The notes under the pieces were generated by a model that did not search any database, was not told where the DNA came from, and worked only from the letters and a program-made list of their open reading frames with translations. Source: Myxococcales bacterium (GTDB taxonomy: Bacteria > Myxococcota > Myxococcia > Myxococcales > Anaeromyxobacteraceae). From it: a stretch of 64,000 nucleotides of DNA. Position numbers and translations under genes: made by a program. Shown here one piece after another: positions 5,539 to 26,287 of this stretch. Each line of letters begins with the position of its first letter. Positions within the stretch are counted from its first letter, which is position 1. The DNA lies in assembly GCA_021806645.1 (NCBI GenBank), contig JAJZQX010000011.1, positions 101,755 through 165,754 on the forward strand. Reading direction: 5' to 3'.

Positions 5539-5637
5539 AGGAGCGACCAGGCGGACGCCGCGATGGCCTCCTCCCAGCCGAACCAGGGGGATTGTGCGTC
5601 TTGGGATGTCCCTCCCGGTGCTACGCTCCCCTCGCTG

Positions 5638-10101: not shown

Positions 10102-10129
10102 TTGATCTGCGGGTTGAAGGCCATACACT
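10102..10129 (+). promoter_or_regulatory. Candidate sigma-70 promoter for larB-larC
   Basis: TTGATC (10102-10107) and TACACT (10124-10129) are separated by 16 bp, 45 bp upstream of the larB ATG. The match is moderate, but this is the best -35/-10 pair in an otherwise promoter-poor GC-rich stretch. Confidence 0.4.
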
Positions 10130-10174
10130 CGCAGCCAGCTTGCTCACTCAGCTCAACCCAAGGTGGATGCCACG

Positions 10175-10918
10175 ATGAACGAGACCACCCTCCGCCGTCT
10201 CCTGAAGCGCGTCGCCAGCGGTGCCACCCCGCTCGACGCGGCGGTGGCGGCGCTCAAGGCCGCCCCTTTCGAGCGGCTCGGCGACGTGGCCACGCTCGAT
10301 ACCCACCGGGCCCTGCGCCAGGGGATGCCGGAGGTGGTGCTGGCCGATCGCAAGTCAGCGGCGCAGCTGGTGGCCATCGTCAAGCGGCTGGCCGCCCACG
10401 GCCCGCTGCTGGTGACGCGCCTCTCGCCGGAGAAGGCCGTGCCGGTGAAGCGGGCCGTCAAGGGGTCGATCTACGACCCGGTCTCGCGCACCCTGCGGCG
10501 CGGCCGGATGGAGCTCCCGGCGCTGGGGCCGGTGGCGGTCTGCTGCGCCGGCACCAGCGACGTGCCGGTCTGCGAGGAGGCGGTGGTCACCCTCGAGGTC
10601 ATGGGGGTCGAGGCGCTGCGCGTCTATGACGTGGGCGTGGCCGGGATCCACCGGCTGCTGGCGCGGCGCGAGGAGCTCACCCGGGCCCGCGCCGTGGTGG
10701 TGGCGGCCGGCATGGAGGGGGCGCTGCCGAGTGTGGTGGGCGGCCTGGTGGGGCGTCCGGTCATCGCCGTGCCGACCTCGGTCGGCTACGGGGCCTCGCT
10801 GGGCGGCATCGCCGCGCTGCTGGCCATGCTCAACTCCTGCGCCCCCAACGTGACCGTGGTCAACATCGACAACGGTTTCGGCGCCGGCTTCGTGGCGGGG
10901 TTGATCGCCCGCGGCTGA
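10175..10918 (+). CDS. larB: Nickel-pincer nucleotide biosynthesis protein LarB
   Basis: A 247-residue LarB, the enzyme that carboxylates the pyridinium ring of nicotinic acid adenine dinucleotide and hydrolyses it to pyridinium-3,5-dicarboxylate mononucleotide, the first step of NPN cofactor synthesis. The C-terminal half has the PurE-like fold, with 'GTSDVPVCEEA' and the signature 'LNSCAPNVTVVNIDNGFGAG'; its Cys222 matches the catalytic cysteine of characterised LarB. ATG 10175 is preferred because AAGGTGG (10160-10166) sits 8 nt upstream; an in-frame GTG at 10163 is inside that site. larC follows 21 bp later, so the two form an operon. Confidence 0.93.
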   Translation: MNETTLRRLLKRVASGATPLDAAVAALKAAPFERLGDVATLDTHRALRQGMPEVVLADRKSAAQLVAIVKRLAAHGPLLVTRLSPEKAVPVKRAVKGSIYDPVSRTLRRGRMELPALGPVAVCCAGTSDVPVCEEAVVTLEVMGVEALRVYDVGVAGIHRLLARREELTRARAVVVAAGMEGALPSVVGGLVGRPVIAVPTSVGYGASLGGIAALLAMLNSCAPNVTVVNIDNGFGAGFVAGLIARG

Positions 10919-10939
10919 CGTGCTCCGCTCACGGTGACC

Positions 10940-11665
10940 ATGCCCCAGCGCCTCCTTCTCCTCGAACCGATCGGCGGCCTGGCCGGCGACATGTTCCTCG
11001 CCGCCGCGCTCGACCTGGGCGTGGACCGCGCCGACCTGGAGGCGCAGCTCGCCACCTTGGCGCTACCGGGCTGGCGGCTGGATGTGCGCCGGATCGAGGT
11101 GAACGCCATCGCAGCCATCCACGTCGACGTGTACGTCGATGGTCCGCCCGGCCCGGCCCGGCGGCTCGCCGATCTGACTGCCATCGTCGAGTCGAGCGGC
11201 CTCTCGCCGCGGAGCCGGGCGGCGGCCCGTGACCTCTTCACCCGGCTGGCTCGGGCCGAGGCCAAGGTGCACGGCTGCGGCGTCGAGGAGGTCCACTTCC
11301 ACGAGGTCGGGGCAGTCGACTCGATCATCGACGTCTGCGGCGCGGTGGTGGTGATGGAGCTGCTTGGCTGGCCGCGCGCGGTGGCCTCGCCGCCCGAACT
11401 CGGCAGCGGCTTCGTCAAGACCGCGCACGGCCTGCTCCCGGTCCCGCCGCCGGCGGTGCTGGAGCTGCTGGTCGGCCTGCCGGTGCGGCCGGGCGGGCCG
11501 GCCGGTGAGGCGGTCACTCCCACCGGGGCGGCGCTGCTGGCCGGCCTCTTCGAACTCGGCCCGCTCCCGGCCCACCGCCCCGGCCGGATCGGTTACGGCG
11601 CCGGCACGGCGCGCTGGATCGACAGGCCCAACCTGGTCCGGCTCACGCTGGGAGAAGCGGTGTAG
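10940..11665 (+). CDS. larC: LarC N-terminal part only (LarC1-like)
   Basis: A 241-residue protein matching the N-terminal half of LarC, the CTP-dependent enzyme that inserts nickel into the pincer cofactor. It shows the N-terminal '[12 protein letters not shown]' motif, '[17 protein letters not shown]', and ends in '[21 protein letters not shown]', the usual junction before the C-terminal domain. A TAG at 11663 ends it, and only ~60 bp separate it from convergent larE, so the C-terminal domain (LarC2) is absent here. In Lactiplantibacillus full LarC is made by a programmed frameshift; no downstream frame supports that here. ATG 10940 chosen; GTG 10934 is possible. Confidence 0.88.
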
Positions 11666-11727
11666 GTCGGGAAACCGGACGCCGAGGCGCCGCTGATCCC
11701 TCCGGAAGCGCCGTCGTGCCAGCCTGG

Positions 11728-12570
11728 CTACAGGACCGGAAGCGGACGGCCAGCAAGTTCGTTCAACCGACCGGTGCGGAAGGGCTCCAGATCGAGCGCC
11801 ACCAGCTTGAAGCCCGCCAGCTTCACTGCGCTCGCAACATCGGCACGGCGAGCATATGCCGTGTCCATCTCCTCGGCCGAGACCTCGACCCGACCGATGT
11901 CCCCGTGCCAGCGTACGCGAAAATTCCGCAGGCCAAGGTCCCGGAGTGCCGCCTCGGCCCGCTCCACTTGCAGGAGGCGCTCCGGAGTCACCTCGGTGCC
12001 GTACGGGAGGCGTGACGCAAGGCAGGCCATCTGCGGCTTGTCCCAGGTCGGCAGCCCGAGCGAACGGCTCCAGGATCGGATCTCGTCCTTGGTGAGCCCA
12101 GCGTCCGCCAGCGGGGAGGAAACATTTGCTTCCAAGGCTGCTCGGTGGCCTGGTCGATGGTCCCGCCGGTCATCGGCATTGAAGCCGTCGACGACGGCAG
12201 GCAACCCCTCCCGCTGTGCCGTGTGGGCGCAGAGCCTGTAGAGCTCAGTCTTGCAGAAGTAGCAGCGGTCCAGATCGTTTGCTCGGTAACGCGGGTCCGC
12301 TCCCTCCTGGCTCTCGACCGCGAGATGACGCACACCGAGAAGGGTGGCGAGCTGCCGCGCCGCGTCTCGCTCGGACCGAGGCACACTCGGCGAGTGCGCC
12401 GTGAGGGCGACGACCCGGTCCCCGAGCACGTCGTGAGCAACAGCAAGAACGAGGGCCGAGTCGACGCCCCCGGAAAAGGCCACGAGCACGCCCTTCAGCT
12501 CCGCGAGCAAGGCCCGCAGTCGCGCCATCTTGTCTGCGCTCTGGCGTTGAAGCTCGATGTGGTCGGTCAT
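11728..12570 (-). CDS. larE: Sacrificial sulfur transferase LarE
   Basis: A 280-residue LarE of the PP-loop ATPase superfamily. It adenylates and thiolates the pyridinium dicarboxylate mononucleotide to give the NPN thio-acids. The PP-loop SGGVDS is at residues 33-38, 'RCYFCKTELY' at 102-111 is diagnostic of the family, and Cys183 in 'QMACLASRLPYG' matches the cysteine whose sulfur is donated (converted to dehydroalanine) in single-Cys LarE proteins. It is convergent with larBC and divergent from the IclR-headed operon, so one regulatory region (12571-12735) may control both larE and the catabolic genes. Confidence 0.93.
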   Translation of the reverse strand: MTDHIELQRQSADKMARLRALLAELKGVLVAFSGGVDSALVLAVAHDVLGDRVVALTAHSPSVPRSERDAARQLATLLGVRHLAVESQEGADPRYRANDLDRCYFCKTELYRLCAHTAQREGLPAVVDGFNADDRRDHRPGHRAALEANVSSPLADAGLTKDEIRSWSRSLGLPTWDKPQMACLASRLPYGTEVTPERLLQVERAEAALRDLGLRNFRVRWHGDIGRVEVSAEEMDTAYARRADVASAVKLAGFKLVALDLEPFRTGRLNELAGRPLPVL

Positions 12571-12695
12571 GGTCCTGCTGGCCTCCTGCAGGTGATAGTC
12601 CGGCGACCCGGCTCGTGCATCTGGAAATCGGTCGTACCAGGTCTGGGAAGCGACTTCGGTGACCAGCCAGGGCGGCCGTGGACCAGTGACTTCGC

Positions 12696-12724
12696 TTGAC
12701 AGGTCAATTCCGGTCGGGTACCGC
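12696..12724 (+). promoter_or_regulatory. Candidate iclR operon promoter with TTGAC palindrome
   Basis: TTGACA at 12696-12701 is a perfect -35; 17 bp later (12719-12724) the -10 is poor (TACCGC), as expected for an activator-dependent promoter. The -35 is part of a perfect inverted repeat TTGAC-AG-GTCAA (12696-12707), which may be a regulator site. It lies in the divergent larE/iclR intergenic region. Confidence 0.4.
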
Positions 12725-12735
12725 TGAGCACATCC

Positions 12736-12753
12736 GTGAAATCACCATTTCAC
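12736..12753. promoter_or_regulatory. IclR-type palindromic operator overlapping the start codon
   Basis: GTGAAAT-CACC-ATTTCAC is a perfect 7-4-7 inverted repeat whose first three bases are the proposed GTG start codon of the IclR-family gene. The arms resemble IclR-family operators, which commonly carry GGAAAT/ATTTCC-like half sites. Placement over the translation start would fit autorepression. It was recognised by symmetry only. Confidence 0.5.
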
Positions 12754-13620
12754 ATTCTGAAACGTCCAGGCTCGCCCCGACGCTACCAGATCAAGGTCCT
12801 GGAGAAGGCGCTCGCCGTGCTCGACCTCCTCGGCGAGGCCGAAGGAGCGCTCACGCTCTCGGAGGTCAGCGAGCGGCTCTCCCTGAGCAAACCTACGGCG
12901 TTCCGGATCCTGAGCGTCCTGGACCAGGCCAGCTACCTGGAGCGGGCGCCGGGCTCGCAGGGCTACCGCCTCGGGCTCAAGCTCTCCCGGCTCGGCGCGC
13001 GGGTAGACCGCACCATGGCATTCCAGAAGGTCGCCAGGCCATTCCTCGTGGAATTGAAGGAGCGGTGTGGCGAGACCGTGCACCTCACCGTGCTCGAGAA
13101 CGGGGAGGCGCTCTACCTCGACAAGATAGAGGGGCAGCGCGCGGTGCGAGTCGTCTCGCGCGTGGGCATGAGGCTCCCCGCGCACTGCTCCGGCGTCGGC
13201 AAGGTGCTGCTGGCCTACCTACCGGACGACGAGGTTGCCGAGGTCATTCTCGAGCGCGGCCTGGCGCGCCTGACTCCGAACACCATCACGGATCGGACCG
13301 CGCTCCGAGCCGAGCTGAAGCGGATCCGTGAGCGTGGATTCGCCATCGACAACGAGGAGATCGAGGTTGGACTCAAGTGCGTTGCGGCGCCGATCCGGGA
13401 TGCCTCCGGCGAAGTCAGGGCTGCACTGAGCATCTCGGGGCCGAAGTTCCGGTTCACCGAGGCAGAGACCAAGAAGCTCGTGAACCTCGTGGTGCGCATG
13501 GCGGAGCAGATCTCCTCCGCCATCAGGCAGGAAGCCCTGGATCGGACAGAACTCAGGAGGGCACCGGATGCAATCGTCGATAGGACGGTCGGCAGGCGGC
13601 GCACGGCTGGCCGAAGCTGA
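12736..13620 (+). CDS. IclR-family transcriptional regulator
   Basis: A 294-residue IclR-type regulator. The N-terminal winged helix spans residues ~15-75 ('KALAVLDLLGEAEGALTLSEV', 'LSKPTAFRILSVLDQASYLER'), and the effector-binding IclR domain ~85-260 ('LPAHCSGVGKVLLAYLP', 'EVGLKCVAAPIRD'). No ATG precedes the HTH, so the GTG at 12736 is the likely start and it lies within a palindrome. As first gene of the catabolic operon, with the next gene overlapping it by 53 bp, it is probably the pathway-specific regulator responding to the substrate or an intermediate. Confidence 0.9.
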   Translation: MKSPFHILKRPGSPRRYQIKVLEKALAVLDLLGEAEGALTLSEVSERLSLSKPTAFRILSVLDQASYLERAPGSQGYRLGLKLSRLGARVDRTMAFQKVARPFLVELKERCGETVHLTVLENGEALYLDKIEGQRAVRVVSRVGMRLPAHCSGVGKVLLAYLPDDEVAEVILERGLARLTPNTITDRTALRAELKRIRERGFAIDNEEIEVGLKCVAAPIRDASGEVRAALSISGPKFRFTEAETKKLVNLVVRMAEQISSAIRQEALDRTELRRAPDAIVDRTVGRRRTAGRS

Positions 13621-14428
13621 CCCGCGCAAGGCGCCGATCGACGTGCGTGAGGTGCTCCTCGCGCCGCTGGCCGGGAAGACCTTCCAGTTCGCGATCACGG
13701 CGGTCGAGCCGGCGGTCCTGGCGGGCTCGTTCCGGCTGGCCGAGAAGGCCAAGGAACTCGGGTTGCACATGAGCCAGGTGGCGGCCAACGGTGACCGGCT
13801 CGTGGCAGGCTCCATGGTGTGCCAGGCGCGGGCTGGAGCTGCTGGCCTGGCCCGCGCCGAGGAGCAACTCCTCGGGCTGATCGGCAAGGCCTCGGGGGTG
13901 GCGACGGCCGCCGCCGAGCTGGTCGCGATCTCCAGGGGTCGGGCGCGCATCGTGTGCGGCGCATGGAAGAAGGTCCCGGCGGAGATCCGGCTCGACCTGC
14001 GAGATGCCGCCGCCCTGGGAGGCGCCGGGATTCGCATGCTCGATCGCCCGTTCGTGTACCTCGACAAGAACCACGTTCGCATGCTCGGCGGCGTGGTCCG
14101 CGCCGTGAGGCAGGCGCGCCTGGTGGAGGGCCGCGCCATCGTGGTGCAGCTGCGCGGCGACGGCGACTCCATCGCCGATGAAGCAGAGGCGGCAGCGGCC
14201 GAAGGCGCCGAGATGCTCATGGTGGACACGGGTCGAGTGGCCGATCTGCAGGCGGTCGCCATGCGGGTGCGGTCGCGGGTGGAGCGACACGAGGTCCAGC
14301 TGGCGTTCGGTGGCGGAGTCCGCGCGGCGCACCTCGAGTCGGTGATCGAGGCAGGGGCCCATGTCATCGACGTGGGCCGGGCGATCCTGGACGCACCGAT
14401 GGTCGACTTTCGTCTCGACGTGGGATGA
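13568..14428 (+). CDS. NadC/ModD-like phosphoribosyltransferase family protein
   Basis: A 286-residue protein of the quinolinate phosphoribosyltransferase fold. It keeps the barrel motifs 'LDKNHVRMLGG' (NadC 'IKDNHI...GG'), 'GAEMLMVDTG' (NadC 'IIMLDN') and 'FGGGVRAAHLESVIEAGAHVIDVG'. Several residues that hold quinolinate in NadC are altered: the RKT motif reads GAWKK, HR reads IR, and the K-D-N-H order is D-K-N-H. It is therefore unlikely to be a housekeeping NadC. AGGAGGG ends 6-7 nt before ATG 13568, inside the iclR 3' end. The substrate is unknown; because LarB also handles pyridine nucleotides, a role in NPN metabolism is an attractive guess. ModD-type proteins are the other relatives. 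Confidence 0.8.
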   Translation: MQSSIGRSAGGARLAEADPRKAPIDVREVLLAPLAGKTFQFAITAVEPAVLAGSFRLAEKAKELGLHMSQVAANGDRLVAGSMVCQARAGAAGLARAEEQLLGLIGKASGVATAAAELVAISRGRARIVCGAWKKVPAEIRLDLRDAAALGGAGIRMLDRPFVYLDKNHVRMLGGVVRAVRQARLVEGRAIVVQLRGDGDSIADEAEAAAAEGAEMLMVDTGRVADLQAVAMRVRSRVERHEVQLAFGGGVRAAHLESVIEAGAHVIDVGRAILDAPMVDFRLDVG

Positions 14429-15357
14429 GCGCCAGGATGGAACTGAACCTCCTCGAGAAGACCACCTTCTGGGTCGACGACATCGAGCTCGCCGAGGTCG
14501 ACCTGGGAGCGCTCGCAGCGGCCGCTGCGCGGGCCATCGACCTTCCGGCTGACGAGGTGATGGTGGTCGATGTTCGTCCAGGGCTGGTGGCCTTCGACGT
14601 GCTTCGGCCGAAGGTCCTGGCCGAGGCGGTGGTCGGCAAGGAGCGGGTGCTCCTGGATGGCCTGGCCGCGGTGGCGGGGGTCACGCTCGGCCCTGCGGCG
14701 GCGGTGCACTCCGAGGGCGTGCTGGGGTTCATCGCGCTCGACCCCATCTCGGGGGCGAAGGCCGTCGAGGCCGGCGCGGCCATGGCGGTCTCCGTCCTCG
14801 AGAGGGTGGCCCGCCGGGCCATCGTCTTCGCGTCGGGGAGCGAGGTGCGCGACACCAAGATCCGCGACACCAACTCACCTTACCTCGTCGAGGTCCTCGG
14901 GAAGATCGGCTTCCAGGTCAAGTTCGGTGGCGTCCTCGAGGACCACCTGGGTTCCGTGGTGGCGGCCCTGGAGGACGCCATCGGGCGGGGCCACGGGCTG
15001 GTGGTGACCACGGGTGGCGTCGGGGCCGAGGACAAGGACTTCAACGTGGAGGCGGTGCTCCGGGTGGACCCCGATGCCCACACCCCCTGGATCCTCCGCT
15101 TCGAGCCCGACATGCGCCGCCATCACAAGCCGGGTGTCCGCATCGCCGTGGGACGGATCGGTCCGACCTTGCTGGTCGCGCTCCCGGGGCCCCACGACGA
15201 GGTCCGGGTAGCCGGCGAGGTGCTGGCCTCAGGCCTGGCCAGCGGGATGGCAGACGCCGAACTGGCGGAAGGGCTGGCCTCGGTGATCCGGGAACGCTGG
15301 CTCTCGAAGATGGCCAAGAATGGAGGCAACGGTGATCGACATCCCCACCCTGTCTAG
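14425..15357 (+). CDS. MoCF/CinA-type molybdopterin-binding-domain protein
   Basis: 310 residues, ATGA-overlapping the NadC-like gene. Residues ~130-270 form a MogA/MoaB/CinA (MoCF) domain: 'ASGSEVRDTKIRDTNSPYLVE', 'VLEDHLGSVVAALEDA', 'VVTTGGVGAEDKDF', and 'LPGPHDEVRV'. In this fold that region binds and adenylylates a pterin or nucleotide. The N-terminal ~125 residues are a separate domain I do not recognise ('LLEKTTFWVDDIELAEVDLGAL'). No molybdenum enzyme is encoded in the operon, so canonical molybdopterin work is doubtful; the tight pairing with a NadC-like enzyme suggests joint work on a cofactor. Confidence 0.75.
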   Translation: MSARMELNLLEKTTFWVDDIELAEVDLGALAAAAARAIDLPADEVMVVDVRPGLVAFDVLRPKVLAEAVVGKERVLLDGLAAVAGVTLGPAAAVHSEGVLGFIALDPISGAKAVEAGAAMAVSVLERVARRAIVFASGSEVRDTKIRDTNSPYLVEVLGKIGFQVKFGGVLEDHLGSVVAALEDAIGRGHGLVVTTGGVGAEDKDFNVEAVLRVDPDAHTPWILRFEPDMRRHHKPGVRIAVGRIGPTLLVALPGPHDEVRVAGEVLASGLASGMADAELAEGLASVIRERWLSKMAKNGGNGDRHPHPV

Positions 15358-16108
15358 CGCCCTGCTCGAGGCGGAGGCCACTCGCAAGGCGATCGACCCG
15401 CTGACGCTGGTGTATCCAGGCATGAAGATCGAGGACGCCTACCAGGTGCAGCTGGCCGGCATCCAGGTCAAGGTCGGCCGCGGCCGCCGGATCATCGGGA
15501 AGAAGATCGGCCTCACCAGCAAGGGGATGCAGGACCTCCTCGGGGTCCATGAGCCAGACTATGGGCACCTGCTGGACGACATGCTCGTCCCCGCCGGTCA
15601 GCCATGCCGCCGGAACTCGCTCCTGCTCCCCAAGGTGGAGGGGGAGGTGGCCTTCGTGATGAAGGATCGGCTCGCCGGGCCCGGCATCCACGTGGCCGAC
15701 GTGCTGCGCGCCACCGCCGGGGTGATGCCGGCGCTGGAGATCGTCGACACCCGGATCCGGGACTGGAAGATCAAGCTCATCGACACGGTCGCCGACAACG
15801 CCTCCAGCGCGCGGTTCGTCCTGGGCTCACGGCTCCTGCCCGTGGAGCGGTTCGACCTGCGGCTCATCGGCATGTGCCTGGAGAAGAACGGACAGGTCGT
15901 GAACAATGGGGCCGGCGTGGCGGTGCTGGGACACCCGGCGGCGGCCGTGGCCTGGCTCGCCAACCGGCTGGCCGATTTCGGCGCGGCCCTGGAGGCGGGG
16001 GACATCGTCCTCTCCGGCGCGGTGACGGCGGCGGTGGACGTGGCCGCCGGTGACTTCGTAGAGGCCCACTTCGACCGGCTGGGCTCGGTCGCCGTGAAGT
16101 TCGTGTAG
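15332..16108 (+). CDS. 2-oxopent-4-enoate hydratase family enzyme
   Basis: A 258-residue member of the MhpD/DmpE/HpaH hydratase-decarboxylase family. The enzyme adds water to 2-hydroxypenta-2,4-dienoate to give 4-hydroxy-2-oxovalerate. The metal-binding acidic motif '[10 protein letters not shown]' and the strongly conserved '[22 protein letters not shown]' and '[13 protein letters not shown]' are present. GTG 15332 is preferred because GGAGG (15322-15326) is five bases upstream; the ATG at 15320 would bury that site. It overlaps the preceding gene by 26 bp. With the next two genes it forms a complete lower meta-cleavage module. A 4-oxalocrotonate decarboxylase role cannot be excluded. Confidence 0.9.
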
Positions 16109-16125
16109 CTGGGAAGGGGCGTCCA

Positions 16126-17004
16126 GTGACGGAGAAGGTCAAGGTGGCGGTCATCGGGCCCGGCAACATCGGCACCGACCTCATGTACAAGCTCCTGCGG
16201 AGCAAGCAGCTAGAGCTGGTGTTGCTGGCGGGCGTCGAGGAGTCGGAGGGCATCCTGCGCGCGCGCGCGCTGGGGGTCCAGACCGTCATCGGCGACCTGA
16301 GGCCGGTCCTGGAGGATGCCTCGATCCGGATCGTCTTCGACGCCTCGAGCGCCAAGGCGCACCTGCGGCACGCTCGTAAGCTCGAGGCCGCCGGCAAGGT
16401 GGCCATCGATCTCACGCCAGCGGCGGTCGGGCCGTACGTCGTGCCCTCCGTCAATCTCGGATCGCTGCACGGCGCCAAGAACTTCAACATGGTCACCTGC
16501 GGTGGCCAGGCCACCGTGCCCATCGTGTACGCCATCAACCGGGCGGCGGGGGCCAGGTACGCCGAGATGGTGTCGGCCATCGCCAGCAAGAGCGCGGGCC
16601 CTGGGACCCGGAACAACATCGACGAGTTCACGCGGACCACCGCACGGGCGCTCTCGGTGCTGGGCGGGGCCAAGCGGAGCAAGGCCATCATCGTGCTCAA
16701 CCCGGCCGAACCTCCCATGATCATGACCAACACCGTCTACGTCGAGGTGGATCGCCCCGACGAGGCGGCGATCCGGTCGTCGGTCGAGCAGATCGTGGCT
16801 GAGGTGCAGCAGTACGTGCCGGGGTACCGGCTGCGGGTCCCGCCGCAGCTCGAGGGCAACAAGGTCACCACCATCGTCGAGGTGGAAGGGGCCGGGGACT
16901 TCCTTCCGAAATATTCCGGGAACCTGGACATCATCACCGCGGCCGCGGTGGGTGTCGCCGAGAAGCTGGCGGCCGGATGGTCCAGGAAGGAGGCCACCGC
17001 GTGA
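16126..17004 (+). CDS. Acetaldehyde dehydrogenase (acylating)
   Basis: A 292-residue acylating acetaldehyde dehydrogenase of the MhpF/DmpF/BphJ family, which converts acetaldehyde, NAD+ and CoA to acetyl-CoA while channelled to the aldolase. The Rossmann motif '[11 protein letters not shown]' is near residues 9-19, and the catalytic Cys125 lies in '[12 protein letters not shown]'. '[19 protein letters not shown]' and '[11 protein letters not shown]' are family hallmarks. It begins with GTG at 16126 behind GGAAGGGG and overlaps the aldolase gene by GTGA. It is slightly short (usual 300-316 residues) but complete. Confidence 0.95.
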
Positions 17005-18026
17005 GCGAGCCGAGCTTCGTCCATGTCCTCGATGCGACCCTCCGGGATGGCAGCCACCCAATGGGCCACTCCTTCACTCGCGAACAGATCGCGGCCGTAG
17101 CTGGCGGTCTCGACGCGGCGGGCCTCGAGTACATCGAGATCTCCCACGGTGATGGACTGGGCGGCTCCTCCATCAACTACGGGCGCTCGCTCCTCACTGA
17201 CGAGGAGATGCTGGAGGCGGCCGCGCCGGTCATCCACCAGGCCAAGCTGACCGTGCTGCTGCTCCCGGGCATCGGCATCAAGGAAGACCTGGAGATGGCG
17301 GCCAAGCACGGCGCGAAAGCCGTGCGCATCGCCACGCACGTCACCGAGGCGGACATCGCGGCGCAGCACATCGAGCTGGCGCGGAAGCTGGGGATGGAGG
17401 CCTTCGGCTTCCTGATGATGTCCCACATGGCGCCGCCGGAGGTCGTGGCGGCCCAGGCGCGGCTCTTCGAGTCGTACGGCGCCACCACCGTCTACGTGGC
17501 GGACTCGGCTGGCACCATGCTGCCCGGGGACGTGAAGGCGCGAGTGAAGGCGGTCGTGGATGCCGTGAAGGTGCCGGTCGGCTTCCACGCCCACAACAAT
17601 CTCTGCATGGCGGTGGCCAACTCGGTGGCGGCGCTGGAGGTCGGCGCCAGCTTCCTCGACGGCACCTGCCGCGGGCTCGGGGCGGGAGCGGGCAACGCCC
17701 AGCTCGAGGTGCTGGCAGGCGTCCTCGACAAGCTCGGGTACCGGTCCAGCCTCGACTTCTACAAGGTCATGGACGTGGCCGAGGAGATCGTCGCGCCCAT
17801 GATGAAGCGGCCCCAGGTCGTCTCCAAGAACGCCCTCATGATGGGCTACGCCGGCGTCTACTCCAGCTTCCTGCTCTTCACCGCCAGGGCGGCGGAGCGC
17901 TTCGGCGTGGACGCCCGGGACATCCTGGTCGAGCTGGGCAAGCGGCGGATGGTGGGCGGCCAGGAGGACATGATCATCGACGTGGCCTACCGGCTGGCGG
18001 AGCAGCGCAAGGAGAAGACGGCATGA
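17001..18026 (+). CDS. 4-hydroxy-2-oxovalerate aldolase
   Basis: A 341-residue class II pyruvate aldolase (DmpG/MhpE/BphI) that splits 4-hydroxy-2-oxovalerate into pyruvate and acetaldehyde. The N-terminal '[16 protein letters not shown]' supplies the catalytic Arg, metal Asp and catalytic His; '[15 protein letters not shown]' supplies the two metal His. The C-terminal communication domain, which docks on the dehydrogenase, is present. The start is GTG 17001 behind AAGGAGG, overlapping the previous stop. It ends ATGA-overlapped with the ferredoxin gene. Confidence 0.95.
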
Positions 18027-18640
18027 AGACCGTACGCCTCTTGGCCGTGGTGGATCCCGCGAAGTGCACCGGCTGCACCATCTGCGACCGGGTCTGCCCG
18101 ACGCTGGCGATCAAGACCGACCGGAAGTTGCACCTGGCCTCGGTGGACGAGGCACGCTGCAGCGGCTGCCCGGCTTGCGAGCAGCGCTGCCCGGAGGGTG
18201 CCATCCACGTCGTGGTCAGGGAGCGCCCGTTCCACATGGGGGTCGAGGTGCCACCCGCCGACCGCGTGCAGGTCGACGCCATCTGCAGGAAGGCCAAGTT
18301 CCATCCGGAGCAGCTGGTCTGCTACTGCACCGCGACCCGAGCCGACGAGGTGGCGGCGGCCATCCTGCAGGGGGCGCACACGCCCGAGGAGATCTCCTAC
18401 CGCACCGGCGTCCGGACCGGCTGCACAGTCGAGTGCCTGCAGCCGATGCTGCGGCTGCTGGACGCCGCGGGGATCTTCCCGAAGCCGCCGCCTGGGGGGT
18501 GGCAGTGGTACGGGAAGACGGTCACGGCCTGGGAGATCCCCGAGGCGATCAAGCGCAAGTACGGGGCGAGCGGCTTCTACTTCGACGAGGACATCGAGAT
18601 CCTCGACCGCGTCGTCAACGCGCCATCGCAGGAAGAGTGA
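18023..18640 (+). CDS. Ferredoxin-BFD fusion iron-sulphur protein
   Basis: A 205-residue redox protein in two parts. Residues ~10-70 form a bacterial 2x[4Fe-4S] ferredoxin ('CTGCTICDRVCP' and 'CSGCPACEQRCP'). Residues ~95-150 form a BFD-like [2Fe-2S] domain ('CYC' ... 'GCTVEC'). The remaining C-terminus ('WQWYGKTVTAWEIPEAIKRKYG') is unassigned. BFD domains normally dock on flavoenzymes or accept electrons from partner proteins; none is encoded next door, so it may serve the LarA-like enzyme that follows, or an off-locus reductase. ATGA overlap shows co-translation with the aldolase. Confidence 0.85.
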   Translation: MKTVRLLAVVDPAKCTGCTICDRVCPTLAIKTDRKLHLASVDEARCSGCPACEQRCPEGAIHVVVRERPFHMGVEVPPADRVQVDAICRKAKFHPEQLVCYCTATRADEVAAAILQGAHTPEEISYRTGVRTGCTVECLQPMLRLLDAAGIFPKPPPGGWQWYGKTVTAWEIPEAIKRKYGASGFYFDEDIEILDRVVNAPSQEE

Positions 18641-18651
18641 GGGAGGAGACC

Positions 18652-20079
18652 ATGCGTCCACCCATTGCGCCCATGCCACCCCGCAAGTCGCAGTACGGGA
18701 TCGACCCGTCGCTGGTGAGGCGCCGGGTCAGCGAGCTTCCCGGCATCACCTCGATCACCCTGAAGGAGCTCTTCCCCGAGCTGCCCGACGTGATCGTGCC
18801 CGGCCCGGGTGGCCTGCCCGCGGTCCGCAGGGCGGCCGAGGCCACGCTCGACGCCGTCGACATGTCGAGGATCAAGCCCGGAGACAGCGTCAACGTGCTC
18901 GCCTCCCACCACGGGTTCACGCTGCTCGGCGGCGAGCCGTACGCCGAGATGCTGAAGGCCATCAAGGACGTCATCGTGCGCCGGACCGGCTGCACCGACA
19001 TCCGCCTCCGGGCCGGGGTCGGTCTCCGCTTCCGCGAGACCGAGGAGTACATCCGCCGCTTCGGGCTCGATACCCATTTCAACGGGAAGGCCATCGGCGT
19101 CGCCCCCATCGACCAGGCCATCCCCATCGAGACCGAGATCGGCACGCTCTACGGGATCAAGCGGGTCTACGACGCCGACTGGATCGTGCATGCGCACAAC
19201 AGCGACGTCCGCGAGGTGCACTTCCACCGGCAGGTAGATCGCGCCGTGAAGCCGTTCGGCATGTCCTACGCCCGCATCGAGACCCGCTCGACCTACCACC
19301 AGAACATGGGGCCGCGCGCGGCCAACTTCATCGCTCGTGCCATCTTCGACTCCCCCTTCGTGCAGGGGAAGTACGCCTTCTCCTGCTTCCTCACCATGTC
19401 GCCGAACGGGATCATGGGCGTCGATGCGGACCGCGATCTCTACGCACTCAACGAGCGGGTGACCTTCACCGGGTGCAGCCTCTACGGCAGGGTCATGACC
19501 CTGTTCGGCGAGATCGACGAGTGCATCGTCGCCCTCGATTTCCCGTGCCCGGTGGTCTACGTCTTCTCGGCCGGCGTCATCTACGCGAACTTCGCGGGCG
19601 CCAACACCGACCTCTACGACCTGGAGCTCCCGCTGCCCGCGTACACCTGGTACACGGAGGCTTTCTACGGGAAGCAGGGCCGTCCGCTGCTCCCCGAGAT
19701 ACCTCCGCTCAACCCGGCCATCAAGATGTGCGTCCAGAATTACGCCTGGACCGGCTACCCGAGCGCCTTCTTCAGCGAGCACATCCCCACGGTGATCGTG
19801 GGGAAGGAACAGGCGGAGCTGTTCGACCGGGACGCCCAGAACGCGCTGTACACCAGCCACGCCAAGATCCTCGACACCACCGAGGAGGCGATGGCCTACG
19901 CCAGGAAGACCACGGGCAGCGAGAAGGTGCTGGTCTTCGACGGGGCGTTTGGCGGCCTGAACCTGACCGAACCCCTCGCGGAACTCCTGCTGAAGAAGGC
20001 GCCGGCGGTGAGTCGGCGCGTCGACGAGGAGCTGCTTCCCAAGTGGCTGCGGCAGCGCGGGATCTCGTCAGCGGCGTGA
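18652..20079 (+). CDS. Divergent LarA-family (nickel-pincer) enzyme
   Basis: 475 residues, ATG 18652 with GGGAGGAG upstream. Most of the chain is unlike lactate racemase, but the LarA N-domain pattern is visible ('VNVLASHHGFTLLGG', 'IRLRAGVGLRFRETEEYIRRFG', 'GTLYGIKRVYDADWIVH'). Crucially 'EVHFHRQVDRAVKPFG...STYHQN' places His190, Lys200 and His216 at +10 and +26, the same spacing as His174, Lys184 (covalent NPN anchor) and His200 (Ni ligand) of Thermoanaerobacterium LarA. The position equivalent to LarA His108 is Arg. With larB, larC and larE nearby, an NPN-dependent hydride-transfer enzyme (racemase, epimerase or related) acting on a pathway hydroxy-acid is likely; the substrate is unknown. 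Confidence 0.78.
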   Translation: MRPPIAPMPPRKSQYGIDPSLVRRRVSELPGITSITLKELFPELPDVIVPGPGGLPAVRRAAEATLDAVDMSRIKPGDSVNVLASHHGFTLLGGEPYAEMLKAIKDVIVRRTGCTDIRLRAGVGLRFRETEEYIRRFGLDTHFNGKAIGVAPIDQAIPIETEIGTLYGIKRVYDADWIVHAHNSDVREVHFHRQVDRAVKPFGMSYARIETRSTYHQNMGPRAANFIARAIFDSPFVQGKYAFSCFLTMSPNGIMGVDADRDLYALNERVTFTGCSLYGRVMTLFGEIDECIVALDFPCPVVYVFSAGVIYANFAGANTDLYDLELPLPAYTWYTEAFYGKQGRPLLPEIPPLNPAIKMCVQNYAWTGYPSAFFSEHIPTVIVGKEQAELFDRDAQNALYTSHAKILDTTEEAMAYARKTTGSEKVLVFDGAFGGLNLTEPLAELLLKKAPAVSRRVDEELLPKWLRQRGISSAA

Positions 20080-20144
20080 CCTGCAGCCTTCAACTTGTCG
20101 CAGATGCACCACGCAGCAACCACCCACCACGGAGAGGTGCCCAC

Positions 20145-21317
20145 ATGAAGACCCGTCTTTCCACGGTTTCACTCGCGCTCGCGGGCGTCCTGTCCGCCGC
20201 CAGCGCCATCGCCGCCGAGCCCATCAAGATCGGCGTCGTCACCCCCCTCACCCAGACGTACGCGCCCATCGGGCAGCAGGTCCGCTGGGGCCTCGAGCTG
20301 GCCACCAAGGAGGTCAACGCGGCCGGTGGCATCCTGGGCCGCAAGGTGGAGCTGATCTTCGAGGATGAGGAGGCCAATCCCGCCGTGGCCACGCAGAAGG
20401 CCGAGAAGCTGTTCCAGGTCACCAAGGTCGACTTCCTGACCGGAACCGTAAACTCCGGTTCCACCCTGGCGGTGGGCCAGGTGGCGGAGCGCAACGACAG
20501 GCTGATCGCGACCACCGTCTCCTTCTCCGATGCCATCACCGGGGACAAGTGCTCGCCAAACGTGTTCCGCGTCAATGCCCGGGCCGGGCAGCAGTCCGCC
20601 GCCCTGGCGGAGTGGCTGAACAAGGAGAAGCCGGGCGCGTCGGTGTTCTTCCTCGGTCCGGACTACGAGATGGGCCGCAACACCGTGGCGGCCTTCAAGG
20701 CGGCGGTGGAGAGCCGCGGGATGAAGACGGTGGGCGAGATCTTCGCCCCGCTCGGCAACAAGGACTACTCCCCGTTCTTCGGCCAGATGCGGGCCGCCCG
20801 GCCGACGGTGCTCTACACCTCCGTGGCCGGCAACGACACCGCCCGCTTCTTCACGCAGCTGGAGGAGTACGGCCTGCGCAAGAACCTGCTCATCGTCGGA
20901 GCGTCGGGGACGGTCACGTCGCAGAACATGGGCGCCCTGGGGGCCGTCGCCGAGGGGTACGTGACCGGCGTCGGGTATTCGCCCGAGATCGATCTCCCCG
21001 CCAACAAGAAGTTCGTGACCAGCTTCCAGGCCATGGCCGGTGCCGCTCCAGACCTCTACGGCGCTGACTCTTACGGGCTCATCTACTTCTACAAGGCGGC
21101 GGTGGAGAAGGCCAAGTCCACCGACACCGCCAAGGTGCGCACGGCCATGCGTGGCCTGAAGTGGATGACGCCGCAGGGAGAGAAGGAGATGCGCGCGGGC
21201 GACCACCAGGCCATCCAGGACATGTACGCGGTCCGGGTCGAGGGTGGGAAGTTCCGCATCGTGAGCAAGGTGGCGGGAACGCTCGCGGTCGGACCGGACT
21301 CCTGCACCCGCTTCTAG
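20145..21317 (+). CDS. Branched-chain-type ABC transporter substrate-binding protein
   Basis: A 390-residue periplasmic LivK/UrtA-like binding protein. A Sec signal peptide ends near residue 24 ('LAGVLSAASAIAA|EPIKIG'), followed by the Peripla_BP_6 core ('GVVTPLTQTYAPIGQQVRWGLELA', 'AAGGILGRKVELIFEDE'). It is well spaced (65 bp) after the LarA-like gene with GGAGAGG before the ATG, consistent with higher translation. In this operon it most likely captures the pathway substrate (an organic or aromatic acid) rather than leucine. Confidence 0.92.
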   Translation: MKTRLSTVSLALAGVLSAASAIAAEPIKIGVVTPLTQTYAPIGQQVRWGLELATKEVNAAGGILGRKVELIFEDEEANPAVATQKAEKLFQVTKVDFLTGTVNSGSTLAVGQVAERNDRLIATTVSFSDAITGDKCSPNVFRVNARAGQQSAALAEWLNKEKPGASVFFLGPDYEMGRNTVAAFKAAVESRGMKTVGEIFAPLGNKDYSPFFGQMRAARPTVLYTSVAGNDTARFFTQLEEYGLRKNLLIVGASGTVTSQNMGALGAVAEGYVTGVGYSPEIDLPANKKFVTSFQAMAGAAPDLYGADSYGLIYFYKAAVEKAKSTDTAKVRTAMRGLKWMTPQGEKEMRAGDHQAIQDMYAVRVEGGKFRIVSKVAGTLAVGPDSCTRF

Positions 21318-21339
21318 CCGCCGAGCGAGGCCGAGACCG

Positions 21340-23263: not shown

Positions 23264-24024
23264 ACCAGGAGACACCCATCCTCGAGGTGCGAGACCTGAG
23301 CGTTGCGTTCGGCCCCCTGGTGGCCGTGGACCGAATGAGCTTCTCGGCCCAGCGTGGCCACATCACCTCCGTGATCGGCCCAAACGGTGCAGGGAAGAGC
23401 ACCCTGTTCAACCTGGTGAGCGGCGCGCTGCGGCCCGGCAGTGGCGCCGTCCTGTTCGACGGCGCGGATATCACCCGGGAGCGTCCCGACCGCCTGGTTC
23501 GACGGGGACTCTCCCGCTCCTTCCAGATCACCAACCTCTTCGCTGAATTGCCGGTGGTCGAGAACCTACGGCTGGCGGCGCAGGTGCTGGAGTCCCCGTG
23601 GAAAGCCCTCCTCCCCACGTCGGCCTCGAAGCGGACGCGGGACCGGGTCGAGGAGCTGGTCGAGCGGTTCAAGCTCGAGGAGAAGCGGGACGAGCGGGCC
23701 GGTTTCCTTTCTCACGGTGAGCAGCGCCGGCTCGAGATCGCAGTGGCGCTGGCAGGGCGACCAAGGCTCCTGCTGCTCGACGAGCCGACCCAGGGGATGT
23801 CTCACGGGGACACGCTCGATACCGCCGAGCTCATCCGGCAGGTGGCGCAAGAGGCCAGCATCATCCTCATCGAGCACGACATCGACCTGGTCATGAACCT
23901 CTCGGACAACGTGGTGGTGATGCACCAGGGAAGGAAGCTCGCCGAAGGCCCACCCCAGGAGGTTCGGGGGAATCCAGTGGTCCAGGCGGCCTACTTCGGG
24001 ACACAGGTCCATGCTGAGAATTGA
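23260..24024 (+). CDS. Branched-chain-type ABC ATPase (LivG-like)
   Basis: A 254-residue ATPase with Walker A 'GPNGAGKST', signature 'LSHGEQRRLEIAVAL' (S-H-G-E-Q in place of S-G-G-Q-Q), Walker B 'LLLLDEPTQGM' and the His switch 'IEHD'. The only plausible start is TTG 23260, which overlaps the livM stop (TTGA) and has AGGGAGGG just upstream. It energises import with the LivF-like subunit. Confidence 0.9.
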   Translation: MNQETPILEVRDLSVAFGPLVAVDRMSFSAQRGHITSVIGPNGAGKSTLFNLVSGALRPGSGAVLFDGADITRERPDRLVRRGLSRSFQITNLFAELPVVENLRLAAQVLESPWKALLPTSASKRTRDRVEELVERFKLEEKRDERAGFLSHGEQRRLEIAVALAGRPRLLLLDEPTQGMSHGDTLDTAELIRQVAQEASIILIEHDIDLVMNLSDNVVVMHQGRKLAEGPPQEVRGNPVVQAAYFGTQVHAEN

Positions 24025-24718
24025 GGCGCTGCACGCCCATTACGGGCTGAGCCACGTCCTCCAGGGCGTCAGCCTCGAGGTGCACCCCGGCGAGGTGGTG
24101 GGCCTGTTCGGCCGCAATGGCGTGGGGAAGACCACGGTGATGAAATCCGTCGCGGGCTGGGTCACGCCAAGCTCCGGATCGGTCAAGTTCGGCGGAGTCG
24201 AACTGGGCGGCAAGCCCTCGGACGTAATCTGCCGGATGGGGATCGGATTCGTTCCCGAGGACCGGCGAATCTTCCCAGGGTTCACGACCGAGGAGAACCT
24301 CAAGCTGGGTTTCCTGCAGTGTCCGGGGCGCACCTGGGCGGAGGACCGGCTCGCCCTCGAACGCGCCTACCAGCGCTTCCCGCGCCTCAAGGAGCGCCGC
24401 CGGCAGATGGGCGTCACGCTTTCGGGCGGGGAACAGCAGATGCTCGCCATGGCCCGGGTGCTGGTCGGTGCTCCCAAGCTCATCCTCATCGACGAGCCGA
24501 CCGAAGGGCTGGCCCCAATGATCGTAGAGGAGATCTTCAACACCATCGACGCGCTCCGGCGCGATGGGGTTCCCATCCTCCTGGTGGAGCAGAAGGTCTT
24601 CCGCGCTCTCGATGTTTGCGACCGCTTCTACGCGCTGGAGCGGGGGCAGGTGATCGCTCGCGGGGACGCCTCGAAGACGGACGACCGCGAGGCCCTTCGG
24701 CAGGCCATCGCCGTCTAG
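24011..24718 (+). CDS. Branched-chain-type ABC ATPase (LivF-like)
   Basis: A 235-residue second ATPase with Walker A 'GRNGVGKTT', signature 'LSGGEQQMLAMARVL', Walker B 'LILIDEPTEGLAP' and switch region 'LLVEQKV' (Gln where many ABC proteins have His, normal for LivF). It starts inside the 3' end of livG (14 bp overlap). It completes a five-gene importer. Confidence 0.92.
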   Translation: MLRIEALHAHYGLSHVLQGVSLEVHPGEVVGLFGRNGVGKTTVMKSVAGWVTPSSGSVKFGGVELGGKPSDVICRMGIGFVPEDRRIFPGFTTEENLKLGFLQCPGRTWAEDRLALERAYQRFPRLKERRRQMGVTLSGGEQQMLAMARVLVGAPKLILIDEPTEGLAPMIVEEIFNTIDALRRDGVPILLVEQKVFRALDVCDRFYALERGQVIARGDASKTDDREALRQAIAV

Positions 24719-24730
24719 ACGAGACCGCCA

Positions 24731-26209
24731 TTGGTCTCCTGGCTCATGGCGGTGGTGGCGGCGCTTCCGGTGGCGGCGGTCTTCCTGCTCATCGGCTCGC
24801 GGCGGGCGCCGGCCTGGAAGGCCGCCCTGCTTGGCGCTGGGTTGGCCTTCCTGCTGGCGACCACGGTCTGGTCCATGCCACTGGCCGCGGCGCTGGCGGC
24901 GGTTGCCTACGGAGTCGCCACCGGGATCTACCCGATTCTCTACATCGTCTGGGGGTCGCTGTTGCTGTACCAGCTGACCGTCGTCACCGGCTGGGCGGAG
25001 CGGCTCCGGACCAGCATGGCGCACCTGGCAACGGATCGTCACCTGCTGCTTCTCCTGGTGGGCTTCGGCTTCGCCGCGTTCCTGGACAGCACCGCCGGCT
25101 TCCTCACGCCCGTGACCGTGGCCACTGCGCTGCTGGTCGGTCTGGGCGTGCCCGCGCTGGAGGCAGCGGCGTACACGCTGGTGGCCTCCTCGCTCCCACC
25201 CATCTTTGGCGCCATGGGTATCCCGGTCCTGGTGATGGCCGAGGTGGCGGAGGTGCCGCTGGAGGCGCTGGCCAGGACGCAGGCCGCCATCGCTGCCTTG
25301 CTCATCGTGGGGTTTCCCGCGTGGCTCACCGTGACGTTCGGCGGGATGGCGGCCCTTCGGCGGCTCTGGTGGCCGGCGCTGGCGGCTGGCCTCGCCTATG
25401 GGACCGCGCTCTGGTGGACGGTGACCCGCGTCAGCCTCTACCCGGCCGGGCTGGTGGCCGCAGTGGCTGCGCTGCTCGCCATCTGGGTGACCGCCGGCCA
25501 CCGCCGCCTCACTGGCCCTGATGGGTCCTGGCGCGCCGCCCGGCCCTGGTGGCCGTACTGGGTGCTGATGGGCGCGGTCGTGGTCTGGTCACTTCCGGCA
25601 GTGTCGACTGTGCTGGGCCGCTCCACGATCTTGGTGAGAATGCCGGTGCTCCAGACCCTGAGCTGGCGCCTCGACCTGCTCGCGTCTCCGGGTACTGCCA
25701 TCCTCGCCGCCACGGCGCTGGTGGCCTTGTTCGCTCGGAGTTCGTTGGCCCAGGTCGCCGAGGCCGTGGTTGCCTCAGCACGCCAGGTTCGCTACCCGCT
25801 CGTGAACATGCTCAGCATGTTCGCCTTGGCTCAGCTCATGAACGCGAGCGGGATGACTCGTTCGCTGGGCATGGCCGTGGCCGGCGCCCGCGGGGCATTC
25901 CCCCTCTTGAGCCCGTTCCTGTCCTGGTTTGGCGGTGCGCTGGCGGGGAGCAACACCGCTTCCAACGCACTCCTCGGACGGCTCCAATCCTTGACCGCGA
26001 GCCAGCTCGGCCTCGACCCGCTGCTTGTCGTCGCCATCGCTGGAGCGGCGGCGCCGCTCGGGAAGATGGTGGCTCCGCAGGTCATCGCGGCAGCCGTCGG
26101 GGCGGCACGGCTGGAGGGGGCCGAGGGGCGGCTGCTCCGAATTGGGCTACTGCACGGGCTGCTCTGGACGAGCCTGCTCGGTGTGGCAGGAATGCTCCTG
26201 ATGTGGTGA
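24731..26209 (+). CDS. L-lactate permease family (LctP) transporter
   Basis: A 492-residue integral membrane protein of the lactate permease family, with about twelve hydrophobic segments and the C-terminal signature 'FGGALAGSNTASNALLGRLQ' close to the LctP/GlcA 'GSNTSSNALFG' motif, plus 'APLGKMVAPQ'. It follows livF by 12 bp, so it is the last gene of the operon. TTG 24731 gives MVSWLMAV; ATG 24746 is an alternative start. LctP proteins move short 2-hydroxy-acids (lactate, glycolate), which fits a pathway containing a LarA-type enzyme. Having both an ABC importer and a permease suggests two related substrates, or export of an intermediate. Confidence 0.88.
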   Translation: MVSWLMAVVAALPVAAVFLLIGSRRAPAWKAALLGAGLAFLLATTVWSMPLAAALAAVAYGVATGIYPILYIVWGSLLLYQLTVVTGWAERLRTSMAHLATDRHLLLLLVGFGFAAFLDSTAGFLTPVTVATALLVGLGVPALEAAAYTLVASSLPPIFGAMGIPVLVMAEVAEVPLEALARTQAAIAALLIVGFPAWLTVTFGGMAALRRLWWPALAAGLAYGTALWWTVTRVSLYPAGLVAAVAALLAIWVTAGHRRLTGPDGSWRAARPWWPYWVLMGAVVVWSLPAVSTVLGRSTILVRMPVLQTLSWRLDLLASPGTAILAATALVALFARSSLAQVAEAVVASARQVRYPLVNMLSMFALAQLMNASGMTRSLGMAVAGARGAFPLLSPFLSWFGGALAGSNTASNALLGRLQSLTASQLGLDPLLVVAIAGAAAPLGKMVAPQVIAAAVGAARLEGAEGRLLRIGLLHGLLWTSLLGVAGMLLMW

Positions 26210-26267
26210 GGAACAACGCCGCGGCACTGACGCCGGTTGCGCCAGGCCATTCGCGGTTGTATGTAAC

Positions 26268-26277
26268 TTCCGGAAGA
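26268..26277. promoter_or_regulatory. Palindrome upstream of AbiE-type TA operon
   Basis: CTTCCGGAAG is a perfect 10-bp palindrome 10 bp upstream of the antitoxin ATG, embedded in a locally AT-rich stretch (TTGTATGTAA). AbiEi-type antitoxins autoregulate by binding inverted repeats in their promoters, so this is a candidate operator. Confidence 0.4.
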
Positions 26278-26287
26278 TAAAGGACCT

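What the first reader, a model, noticed from the sequence alone, without database searches (positions are those of the whole stretch)
10102..26209. Nickel-pincer cofactor genes coupled to an undescribed catabolic operon
Seen: larB, larC (N-part) and larE flank an IclR-headed, tightly overlapping operon containing a LarA-family enzyme, a complete lower meta-cleavage module (hydratase, aldolase, acetaldehyde dehydrogenase), a ferredoxin-BFD protein, a NadC-like and a MoCF-like protein, a Liv-type ABC importer and an LctP-type permease. Known: LarB/LarC/LarE make the NPN cofactor; LarA-family enzymes use it for hydride transfer at 2-hydroxy-acids; the module turns 2-hydroxypentadienoate into pyruvate and acetyl-CoA. 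No ring-cleavage dioxygenase or CoA ligase is present, so substrate must enter late or by a new chemistry. Inference: a dedicated NPN-dependent pathway for a C5-type (hydroxy/oxo) acid, with its own cofactor supply.
Basis: partly seen in the sequence, partly recalled or inferred. Interest (0 to 1): 0.85.

Follow-up and report, generated by a model that had tools for sequence, protein, structure and literature searches.

The report
Nickel-pincer operon for furoate ring opening
This operon pairs a protein with a predicted lactate-racemase fold with an iron-sulfur protein and enzymes of the families that split a five-carbon acid into pyruvate and acetyl-CoA; because some relatives carry it beside close homologues of the enzyme that makes 2-furoate, it is predicted to open the furan ring of this plant-sugar breakdown product by adding hydrogen, likely on a nickel cofactor and without oxygen.

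The parts
10163..10918 (+). larB (NPN biosynthesis, carboxylase)
   Evidence: NF033503 270 bits, cut-off 175; 87% identical to a second copy on contig C28
10934..11665 (+). larC, N-terminal part only (truncated)
   Evidence: PF01969 positions 1-235 of 375; C-terminal part not found in the window; intact 408-aa paralogue on C28
11728..12570 (-). larE (sacrificial sulfur transferase)
   Evidence: TIGR00268 320 bits, cut-off 150; second copy on C29, 64% identical
12736..13620 (+). IclR-family regulator
   Evidence: PF01614, PF09339; an IclR homologue is in 37 of 63 fetched loci
13568..14428 (+). NadC-like (QRPTase-family) protein with an altered but conserved site
   Evidence: PF01729; human QPRT GTRKT/HR/KDNH positions read GAWKK/RM/DKNH
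14425..15357 (+). MoCF-like protein: N-terminal domain not identified + MogA/MoeA-type domain
   Evidence: PF00994 on residues 134-268; model and Foldseek; TGGVGAEDKD stretch conserved
15320..16108 (+). 2-oxopent-4-enoate (2-hydroxypenta-2,4-dienoate) hydratase-like
   Evidence: best NCBIfam TIGR03220 300.5 bits, below its equivalog cut-off of 408.8
16126..17004 (+). acylating acetaldehyde dehydrogenase
   Evidence: PF09290 196.7 bits, cut-off 26.6
16977..18026 (+). 4-hydroxy-2-oxovalerate aldolase
   Evidence: TIGR03217 515 bits, cut-off 286; PF07836 communication domain
18023..18640 (+). 2x[4Fe-4S] ferredoxin fused to BFD-like [2Fe-2S] domain; predicted electron donor
   Evidence: PF00037, PF04324; homologue in 62 of 63 fetched loci, just upstream of the LarA-like gene where listed
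18652..20079 (+). divergent LarA-fold protein; predicted NPN-dependent 2-furoate ring-opening reductase
   Evidence: AlphaFold pLDDT 87.7; only LarA-family structures match well; K200 and H216 invariant in 37 of 37
20145..21317 (+). Liv-type substrate-binding protein (predicted importer)
   Evidence: PF13458; also in L002, L010, L011
21340..22236 (+). LivH-type permease
   Evidence: PF02653
22229..23263 (+). LivM-type permease
   Evidence: PF02653
23254..24024 (+). LivG-type ATPase
   Evidence: PF00005, PF12399
24011..24718 (+). LivF-type ATPase
   Evidence: PF00005
24731..26209 (+). lactate-permease-family transporter
   Evidence: PF02652 270 bits; no homologue in 63 loci at tblastn E 1e-8

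Best explanation
The operon likely encodes an oxygen-free route for 2-furoate in which a divergent protein with a predicted LarA fold, predicted to carry a nickel-pincer cofactor, would open the furan ring reductively with electrons likely coming from the adjacent ferredoxin-BFD protein. Proposed mechanism (inferred): a cofactor-bound hydride adds to C5 of 2-furoate. The resulting carbanion expels the ring oxygen from C5, giving 2-hydroxypenta-2,4-dienoate. The hydratase adds water, the aldolase yields pyruvate and acetaldehyde, and the acylating dehydrogenase makes acetyl-CoA and NADH; these three steps follow from enzyme families. The balance furoic acid + 2 H2O = pyruvic acid + acetic acid (C5H8O5 on both sides) means the NADH can repay the electrons used in ring opening. 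Upstream in some relatives, HmfF-type UbiD, iron-type alcohol dehydrogenases and AOR- or Mo-type aldehyde oxidoreductases would feed furfural, HMF and furandicarboxylate into 2-furoate. The NadC-like and MoCF-like proteins go with the LarA-like/ferredoxin pair even in most loci that lack the lower module, so they probably tailor or load the cofactor or assist ring opening (speculative). Shown: gene content, conservation, predicted fold, invariant K/H, association with LarB and HmfF. Inferred: NPN use, substrate, reaction, electron path.
Against: No biochemistry. HmfF-type UbiD is in only 11 of 64 loci and 10 of 49 carrier genomes, and this genome has none (its one UbiD is 27% identical), so the substrate here rests on orthology. 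One of the 5 HmfF-type genomes, G111, has no LarA-like gene. 43 of 49 carrier genomes also have canonical LarA, which could alone explain their LarB; 3 of 49 lack LarB over cut-off. LarA kinship is not seen by sequence: hhalign probability 3.8%. LarA's Asp72/Arg75 (NPN ribose/phosphate) seem to align with His86/Phe89, so the nucleotide part would be held differently; that alignment is weak. No clear counterpart of catalytic His108. Five of 23 loci with at least 8 kb on both sides lack acdh/ald, three of these also hyd. L017 and L053 lack NadC-like and MoCF-like. M24 protein, NadC-like and MoCF-like have no assigned step. A different, oxidative anaerobic furfural route was proposed for Desulfovibrio furfuralis (PMC11384913 passage).
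Confidence: 0.6

Rival explanations
1. Same operon and cofactor, other five-membered heteroaromatic acid: the LarA-like protein reductively opens pyrrole-2-carboxylate (or thiophene-2-carboxylate); from pyrrole-2-carboxylate the aminopentadienoate would hydrolyse to 2-oxopent-4-enoate plus ammonia.
For: The lower module would receive the same C5 skeleton; an M24 creatinase/prolidase-type protein, a family with members acting on imino-acid peptides, is in 26 of 64 loci.
Against: The neighbouring UbiD is far closer to HmfF than to PA0254/HudA (4ip2: 97 and 108 bits against 581 and 527). Fe-ADH and AOR beside it fit furan alcohols and aldehydes.
Confidence: 0.1
2. The operon handles a non-aromatic C5 hydroxy/oxo acid; the LarA-like protein is an ordinary redox-neutral 2-hydroxyacid racemase or epimerase feeding the lower module.
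For: Every LarA homologue whose activity is described in the passages I read is a 2-hydroxy-acid racemase or epimerase (PMC7583248, PMC11770544); a lactate-permease-family gene is next door in this window.
Against: Does not explain the ferredoxin-BFD partner in 62 of 63 loci, BenE, HmfF, or why a C5 pool would need a 2-oxopentenoate hydratase; the permease has no homologue in 63 loci at E 1e-8 (the weak match printed for L006 is a TRAP permease of cluster 34).
Confidence: 0.15
3. Furoate is the substrate, but ring opening follows the oxidative route proposed for Desulfovibrio furfuralis (5-oxo-4,5-dihydrofuran-2-carboxylate to 4-oxobutanoate); the LarA-like operon does something else in parallel.
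For: Published proposal (PMC11384913 passage); xanthine-dehydrogenase-type Mo genes near some loci (L019, L036, L039, L041, L051).
Against: 4-oxobutanoate does not need the hydratase, aldolase and acetaldehyde dehydrogenase that are conserved here; Mo genes are in 5 of 64 loci.
Confidence: 0.1

Closest known systems
LarA superfamily of NPN-dependent 2-hydroxyacid racemases/epimerases (LarA, Mar2, LarA_Ip, LarA_Sp/Bw)
   Different: No detectable sequence similarity; NPN ribose/phosphate positions seem altered; near-constant ferredoxin-BFD, NadC-like and MoCF-like partners; predicted net redox reaction instead of racemisation.
Lower meta-cleavage module (DmpEFG / MhpDFE)
   Same: Hydratase, acetaldehyde dehydrogenase and 4-hydroxy-2-oxovalerate aldolase.
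   Different: Predicted to be fed by an oxygen-independent step; carriers are largely anaerobes by their names; hydratase below the TIGR03220 equivalog cut-off.
Aerobic Hmf pathway (hmfABCDE + hmfFG)
   Same: Would use 2-furoate; HmfF-type decarboxylase present in some relatives.
   Different: The known route goes through furoyl-CoA and C5 hydroxylation to 2-oxoglutarate (PMC6604932 passages); here no CoA ligase or HmfABC in the operon, and predicted products are pyruvate and acetyl-CoA.
NadC / QPRTase; MogA/MoeA/CinA
   Same: Pfam families; the MoCF-like model matches MogA, MoeA, CinA and gephyrin E structures.
   Different: Quinolinate-binding residues replaced by a conserved different set; MoCF-like carries an N-terminal domain that the whole-model search did not identify and that was not searched alone.

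Membership tests
LarA superfamily | LarA two-domain fold | tested here: met
LarA superfamily | Lar_N sequence profile (PF09861) | tested here: not met
   0 of 37 members at E<=10; hhalign prob 3.8%. It is therefore described as LarA-fold and predicted to work like LarA, not filed in the known LarA families
LarA superfamily | Lys that anchors NPN and His that binds nickel | tested here: inconclusive
   K200 and H216 invariant 37 of 37 with LarA spacing of 16 (LarA residues); superposition of the residues could not be run
LarA superfamily | two catalytic His (108 and 174 in L. plantarum LarA) | tested here: inconclusive
   H190 sits 10 before the Lys as H174 does, but is Asp or Tyr in the sister subfamily; no counterpart of H108 seen
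LarA superfamily | NPN content and 2-hydroxyacid isomerisation | not testable with these tools
   needs purified protein
HmfF (furandicarboxylate decarboxylase), for the neighbouring UbiD in relatives | closest to PtHmfF among solved UbiDs | tested here: met
   581 and 527 bits against 194 and 203 for the next families, 2 of 11 UbiDs searched
Lower meta-cleavage module | hydratase + aldolase + acylating acetaldehyde dehydrogenase | tested here: met
   TIGR03217 over cut-off, PF09290 over cut-off; hydratase best TIGR03220 but below its equivalog cut-off
Lower meta-cleavage module | ring-cleavage dioxygenase in the same gene cluster | tested here: not met
   none among the genes of 10163-27825; genome-wide search not done
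NadC (carboxylating QPRTase) | quinolinate-binding Arg/His/Lys residues | tested here: not met
   GTRKT, HR and KDNH positions of human QPRT read GAWKK, RM, DKNH (which residues bind quinolinate is recalled); 88 bits against a cut-off of 198
Aerobic Hmf furoate pathway | furoyl-CoA synthetase and HmfABC | not tested
   absent from the operon; genome not searched for them

The most novel reading that the evidence does not exclude
This is the first enzymatic reductive opening of a furan ring: a LarA-fold enzyme in which a nickel-pincer cofactor, perhaps rebuilt by the NadC-like and MoCF-like partners, takes electrons from iron-sulfur clusters and delivers them as a hydride. It turns the pincer cofactor from a hidden-redox racemase device into a true reductase, and a sister subfamily, in one genome beside a CoA ligase, would do the same to other heteroaromatics.
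Probability: 0.5. Interest if true: 0.93.

Novelty: new variant of a known kind. Interest (0 to 1): 0.85.

Why it matters
Furfural and HMF are toxic by-products of biomass processing (abstracts in the listing). A review (PMC6604932 passages) presents the known aerobic degradation route, names its oxygen requirement as the limitation, and expects other routes to be found. This operon gives a concrete, testable gene set for oxygen-free furan breakdown in many anaerobes. It also adds a candidate to an open question in nickel biochemistry: which proteins use NPN in genomes that have larBCE but no larA (about 15% of genomes analysed, PMC11796402 passages), and whether NPN can do net reductions; [quoted passage not shown]

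Tried and rejected
Aromatic meta-cleavage: no dioxygenase among the genes of 10163-27825, and carriers are mostly anaerobes by their names. Lactate metabolism: the lactate-permease gene has no homologue in 63 loci at E 1e-8. Nicotinate/quinolinate breakdown suggested by the NadC-like gene: quinolinate-binding residues are gone and carbon counts do not fit. Detecting LarA kinship by sequence failed: Pfam, NCBIfam, PDB phmmer, PDB hmmsearch with A3, hhalign with A1/A2 (prob 0.2%) and A3/A4 (3.8%). Plasmid collection: no match. The N-terminal domain of the MoCF-like protein was not identified in the whole-model search and not searched alone. Literature: searches in the open-access library, whose listings were capped at 8-20 titles, showed no description of this operon, of NPN-dependent furan chemistry or of furoate entering this lower module. 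Subscription papers are mostly not held; the PtHmfF paper and Brune 1983 are not held, Folkerts 1989 on D. furfuralis was not looked up and is known here only through PMC11384913. An unseen report is possible. All papers cited were seen as passages, one outline with abstract (PMC12611868) and listings, none in full.

Limits of the counts. L001 (own genome) is left out of the 63-locus tallies but is in the 64-locus tallies. Alignments use part of what was at hand: A1 39 sequences, A3 37, A5 34 (window plus 33 of 38 MoCF-like), A6 19 (window plus 18 of 38 NadC-like). The 63 loci were found with six peptide patterns and lean towards close relatives; the 199-genome sample is drawn evenly from the phylum of G061, but G061 itself, a carrier, is in it as the centre. 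The bit limits for 'HmfF-type' (475, 398) were set after seeing the scores; both results are given. ORFs in fetched loci were called mechanically, so cluster counts are lower bounds in GC-rich loci and one representative per cluster was scanned; tblastn counts are the better ones, and count a homologue anywhere in the locus.
Full report
What is there. The gene list of the finding is correct. From 12736 to 20079 an IclR regulator is followed by seven tightly packed genes: NadC-like, MoCF-like, 2-oxopent-4-enoate hydratase-like, acylating acetaldehyde dehydrogenase, 4-hydroxy-2-oxovalerate aldolase, a 2x[4Fe-4S]-BFD protein, and the 475-residue 'LarA-like' protein; a Liv-type ABC importer and a lactate-permease-family gene follow to 26209. 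larB, a larC without its C-terminal part, and larE (opposite strand) lie upstream. G+C is 0.67-0.69 over 12-28 kb against 0.72 before and 0.71-0.76 after. Among 60 genomes, the own one and 59 relatives, the LarA-like gene is in 3: own, one at 88% and one at 48% identity. Both facts fit horizontal gain.

Does it go with NPN biosynthesis? In 49 genomes carrying the gene, LarB passes its curated cut-off in 46. Of 199 genomes drawn from the phylum of one of them, 16 carry the LarA-like gene and 15 of the 16 have LarB (the exception has only a 95-residue fragment at a contig edge), against 97 of 183 others (Fisher 9e-4). In 7 of the 15 full-length carriers larB lies within 10 kb of the LarA-like gene. 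Against this, 43 of the 49 also have canonical LarA over cut-off, which could explain LarB by itself; the six without it all have LarB, Moorella thermoacetica among them. In 14 of 36 loci with at least 4 kb on both sides, and in 12 of 23 with at least 8 kb, a lar gene is nearby.

What is the core? Of 36 loci with at least 4 kb either side, ferredoxin-BFD is in 36, NadC-like in 34, MoCF-like in 34, hydratase in 32, the full hydratase/dehydrogenase/aldolase set in 30. Several distant loci (L054, L059, L062, L064; also L070 in the relative G008) keep NadC-like and MoCF-like near the LarA-like/ferredoxin pair without the lower module (L054 is a short contig), so these two proteins probably belong to the LarA-like reaction or its cofactor, not to the downstream steps. 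Exceptions: L053 has the pair without either, and L017 has the lower module without either. The NadC-like protein has lost the quinolinate-binding residues but keeps a different conserved set (GxWKK, YLDKN, VDTG). The MoCF-like model matches MogA, MoeA and CinA structures, folds that in the known enzymes handle nucleotide-linked metal cofactors (recalled). That they modify or load the cofactor is an idea, not a result.

What is the substrate? Neighbours in some relatives point to furans. A UbiD decarboxylase lies in 11 of 64 loci, in L042 inside the operon. The two UbiDs searched match PtHmfF (6H6V) at 581 and 527 bits, the next families reaching only 194 and 203. HmfF converts 2,5-furandicarboxylate to 2-furoate (PMC6644310 and PMC8988006 passages). 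In the 199-genome sample, HmfF-type UbiD (over 475 bits) occurs in 5; 4 of them carry the LarA-like gene, against 12 of the other 194, and in these 4 the two genes lie within about 16 kb (Fisher 1.4e-4). At a looser limit (over 398 bits) it is 6 of 9 (7e-6). Genomes G281 and G110 hold iron-type alcohol dehydrogenases, AOR-family oxidoreductases, hmfF, the whole operon and larBC(E) in one gene island. BenE-type permeases are in 30 and M24 creatinase/prolidase-type proteins in 26 of 64 loci.

Chemistry. 2-Furoic acid is C5H4O3; 2-hydroxypenta-2,4-dienoic acid, the hydratase substrate, is C5H6O3. The difference is two electrons and two protons. Hydride addition to C5 followed by expulsion of the ring oxygen gives exactly this compound, and the ferredoxin-BFD protein is a plausible electron source. 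Hydration of furoate would instead give 2,5-dioxopentanoate, for which the module is of no use. The sum furoic acid + 2 H2O = pyruvic acid + acetic acid is redox-balanced, so the NADH of the last step can pay for the first. Hydride-proton pairs that cleave the furan C-O bond are reported for a chemical catalyst (PMC11533051, seen in the search listing only). A paper reports that Desulfovibrio furfuralis grows on furfural and forms acetate, by a different, oxidative route (PMC11384913 passage).

Limits. In this genome no HmfF-type gene was found, so the substrate here follows from orthology (LarA-like protein 82% identical to that of Desulfotomaculum copahuensis, same gene order). The adjacent larC is truncated and the larB/larC pair is 87/79% identical to an intact copy on another contig, so cofactor supply probably comes at least partly from that copy. 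HmfF is present in a minority of carriers (10 of 49). No activity has been measured.

Verdict. The best reading is an anaerobic furoate pathway that starts with a reductive ring opening by a LarA-fold, probably nickel-pincer enzyme. Its parts belong to known superfamilies; the first reaction, if confirmed, would be new as far as the searches listed under Tried and rejected show.

Noticed in passing
L070:1046-6691 (G008), L062, L064: A sister subfamily of the LarA-like protein (41-49% identical) with ferredoxin-BFD, NadC-like and MoCF-like but without the hydratase/aldolase module; in L070 it sits with a PaaK-like CoA ligase and a weakly HadA/MaoC-like protein (both below curated cut-offs), suggesting another heteroaromatic substrate handled as CoA ester.
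   Followed up: partly
L036:15208-16500, L052:10757-12043, L019:5315-6703: Canonical-type LarA homologues near the operon in which the NPN-anchoring lysine position seems to read Met (by eye); they may not bind NPN covalently.
   Followed up: no
L003:12829-13938 and 25 other loci: M24 creatinase/prolidase-type protein in 26 of 64 loci (nearest NCBIfam names for the copy in L091: PepQ, aminopeptidase, ectoine hydrolase, all below cut-off); its role in a furoate pathway is unexplained.
   Followed up: partly
window 10163-11665 and L071:5158-7149: Two larB-larC copies in one genome (87% and 79% protein identity), one with larC cut to its N-terminal part.
   Followed up: yes
window 5563-9891: 1442-residue fusion of HIT, PLD-like, ResIII/DEAD helicase and S24-like domains.
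   Followed up: no
window 26288-27825: Pair resembling AbiEi-type antitoxin (below Pfam cut-off) and AbiEii toxin directly downstream of the operon, followed by two tRNA genes on the other strand.
   Followed up: no
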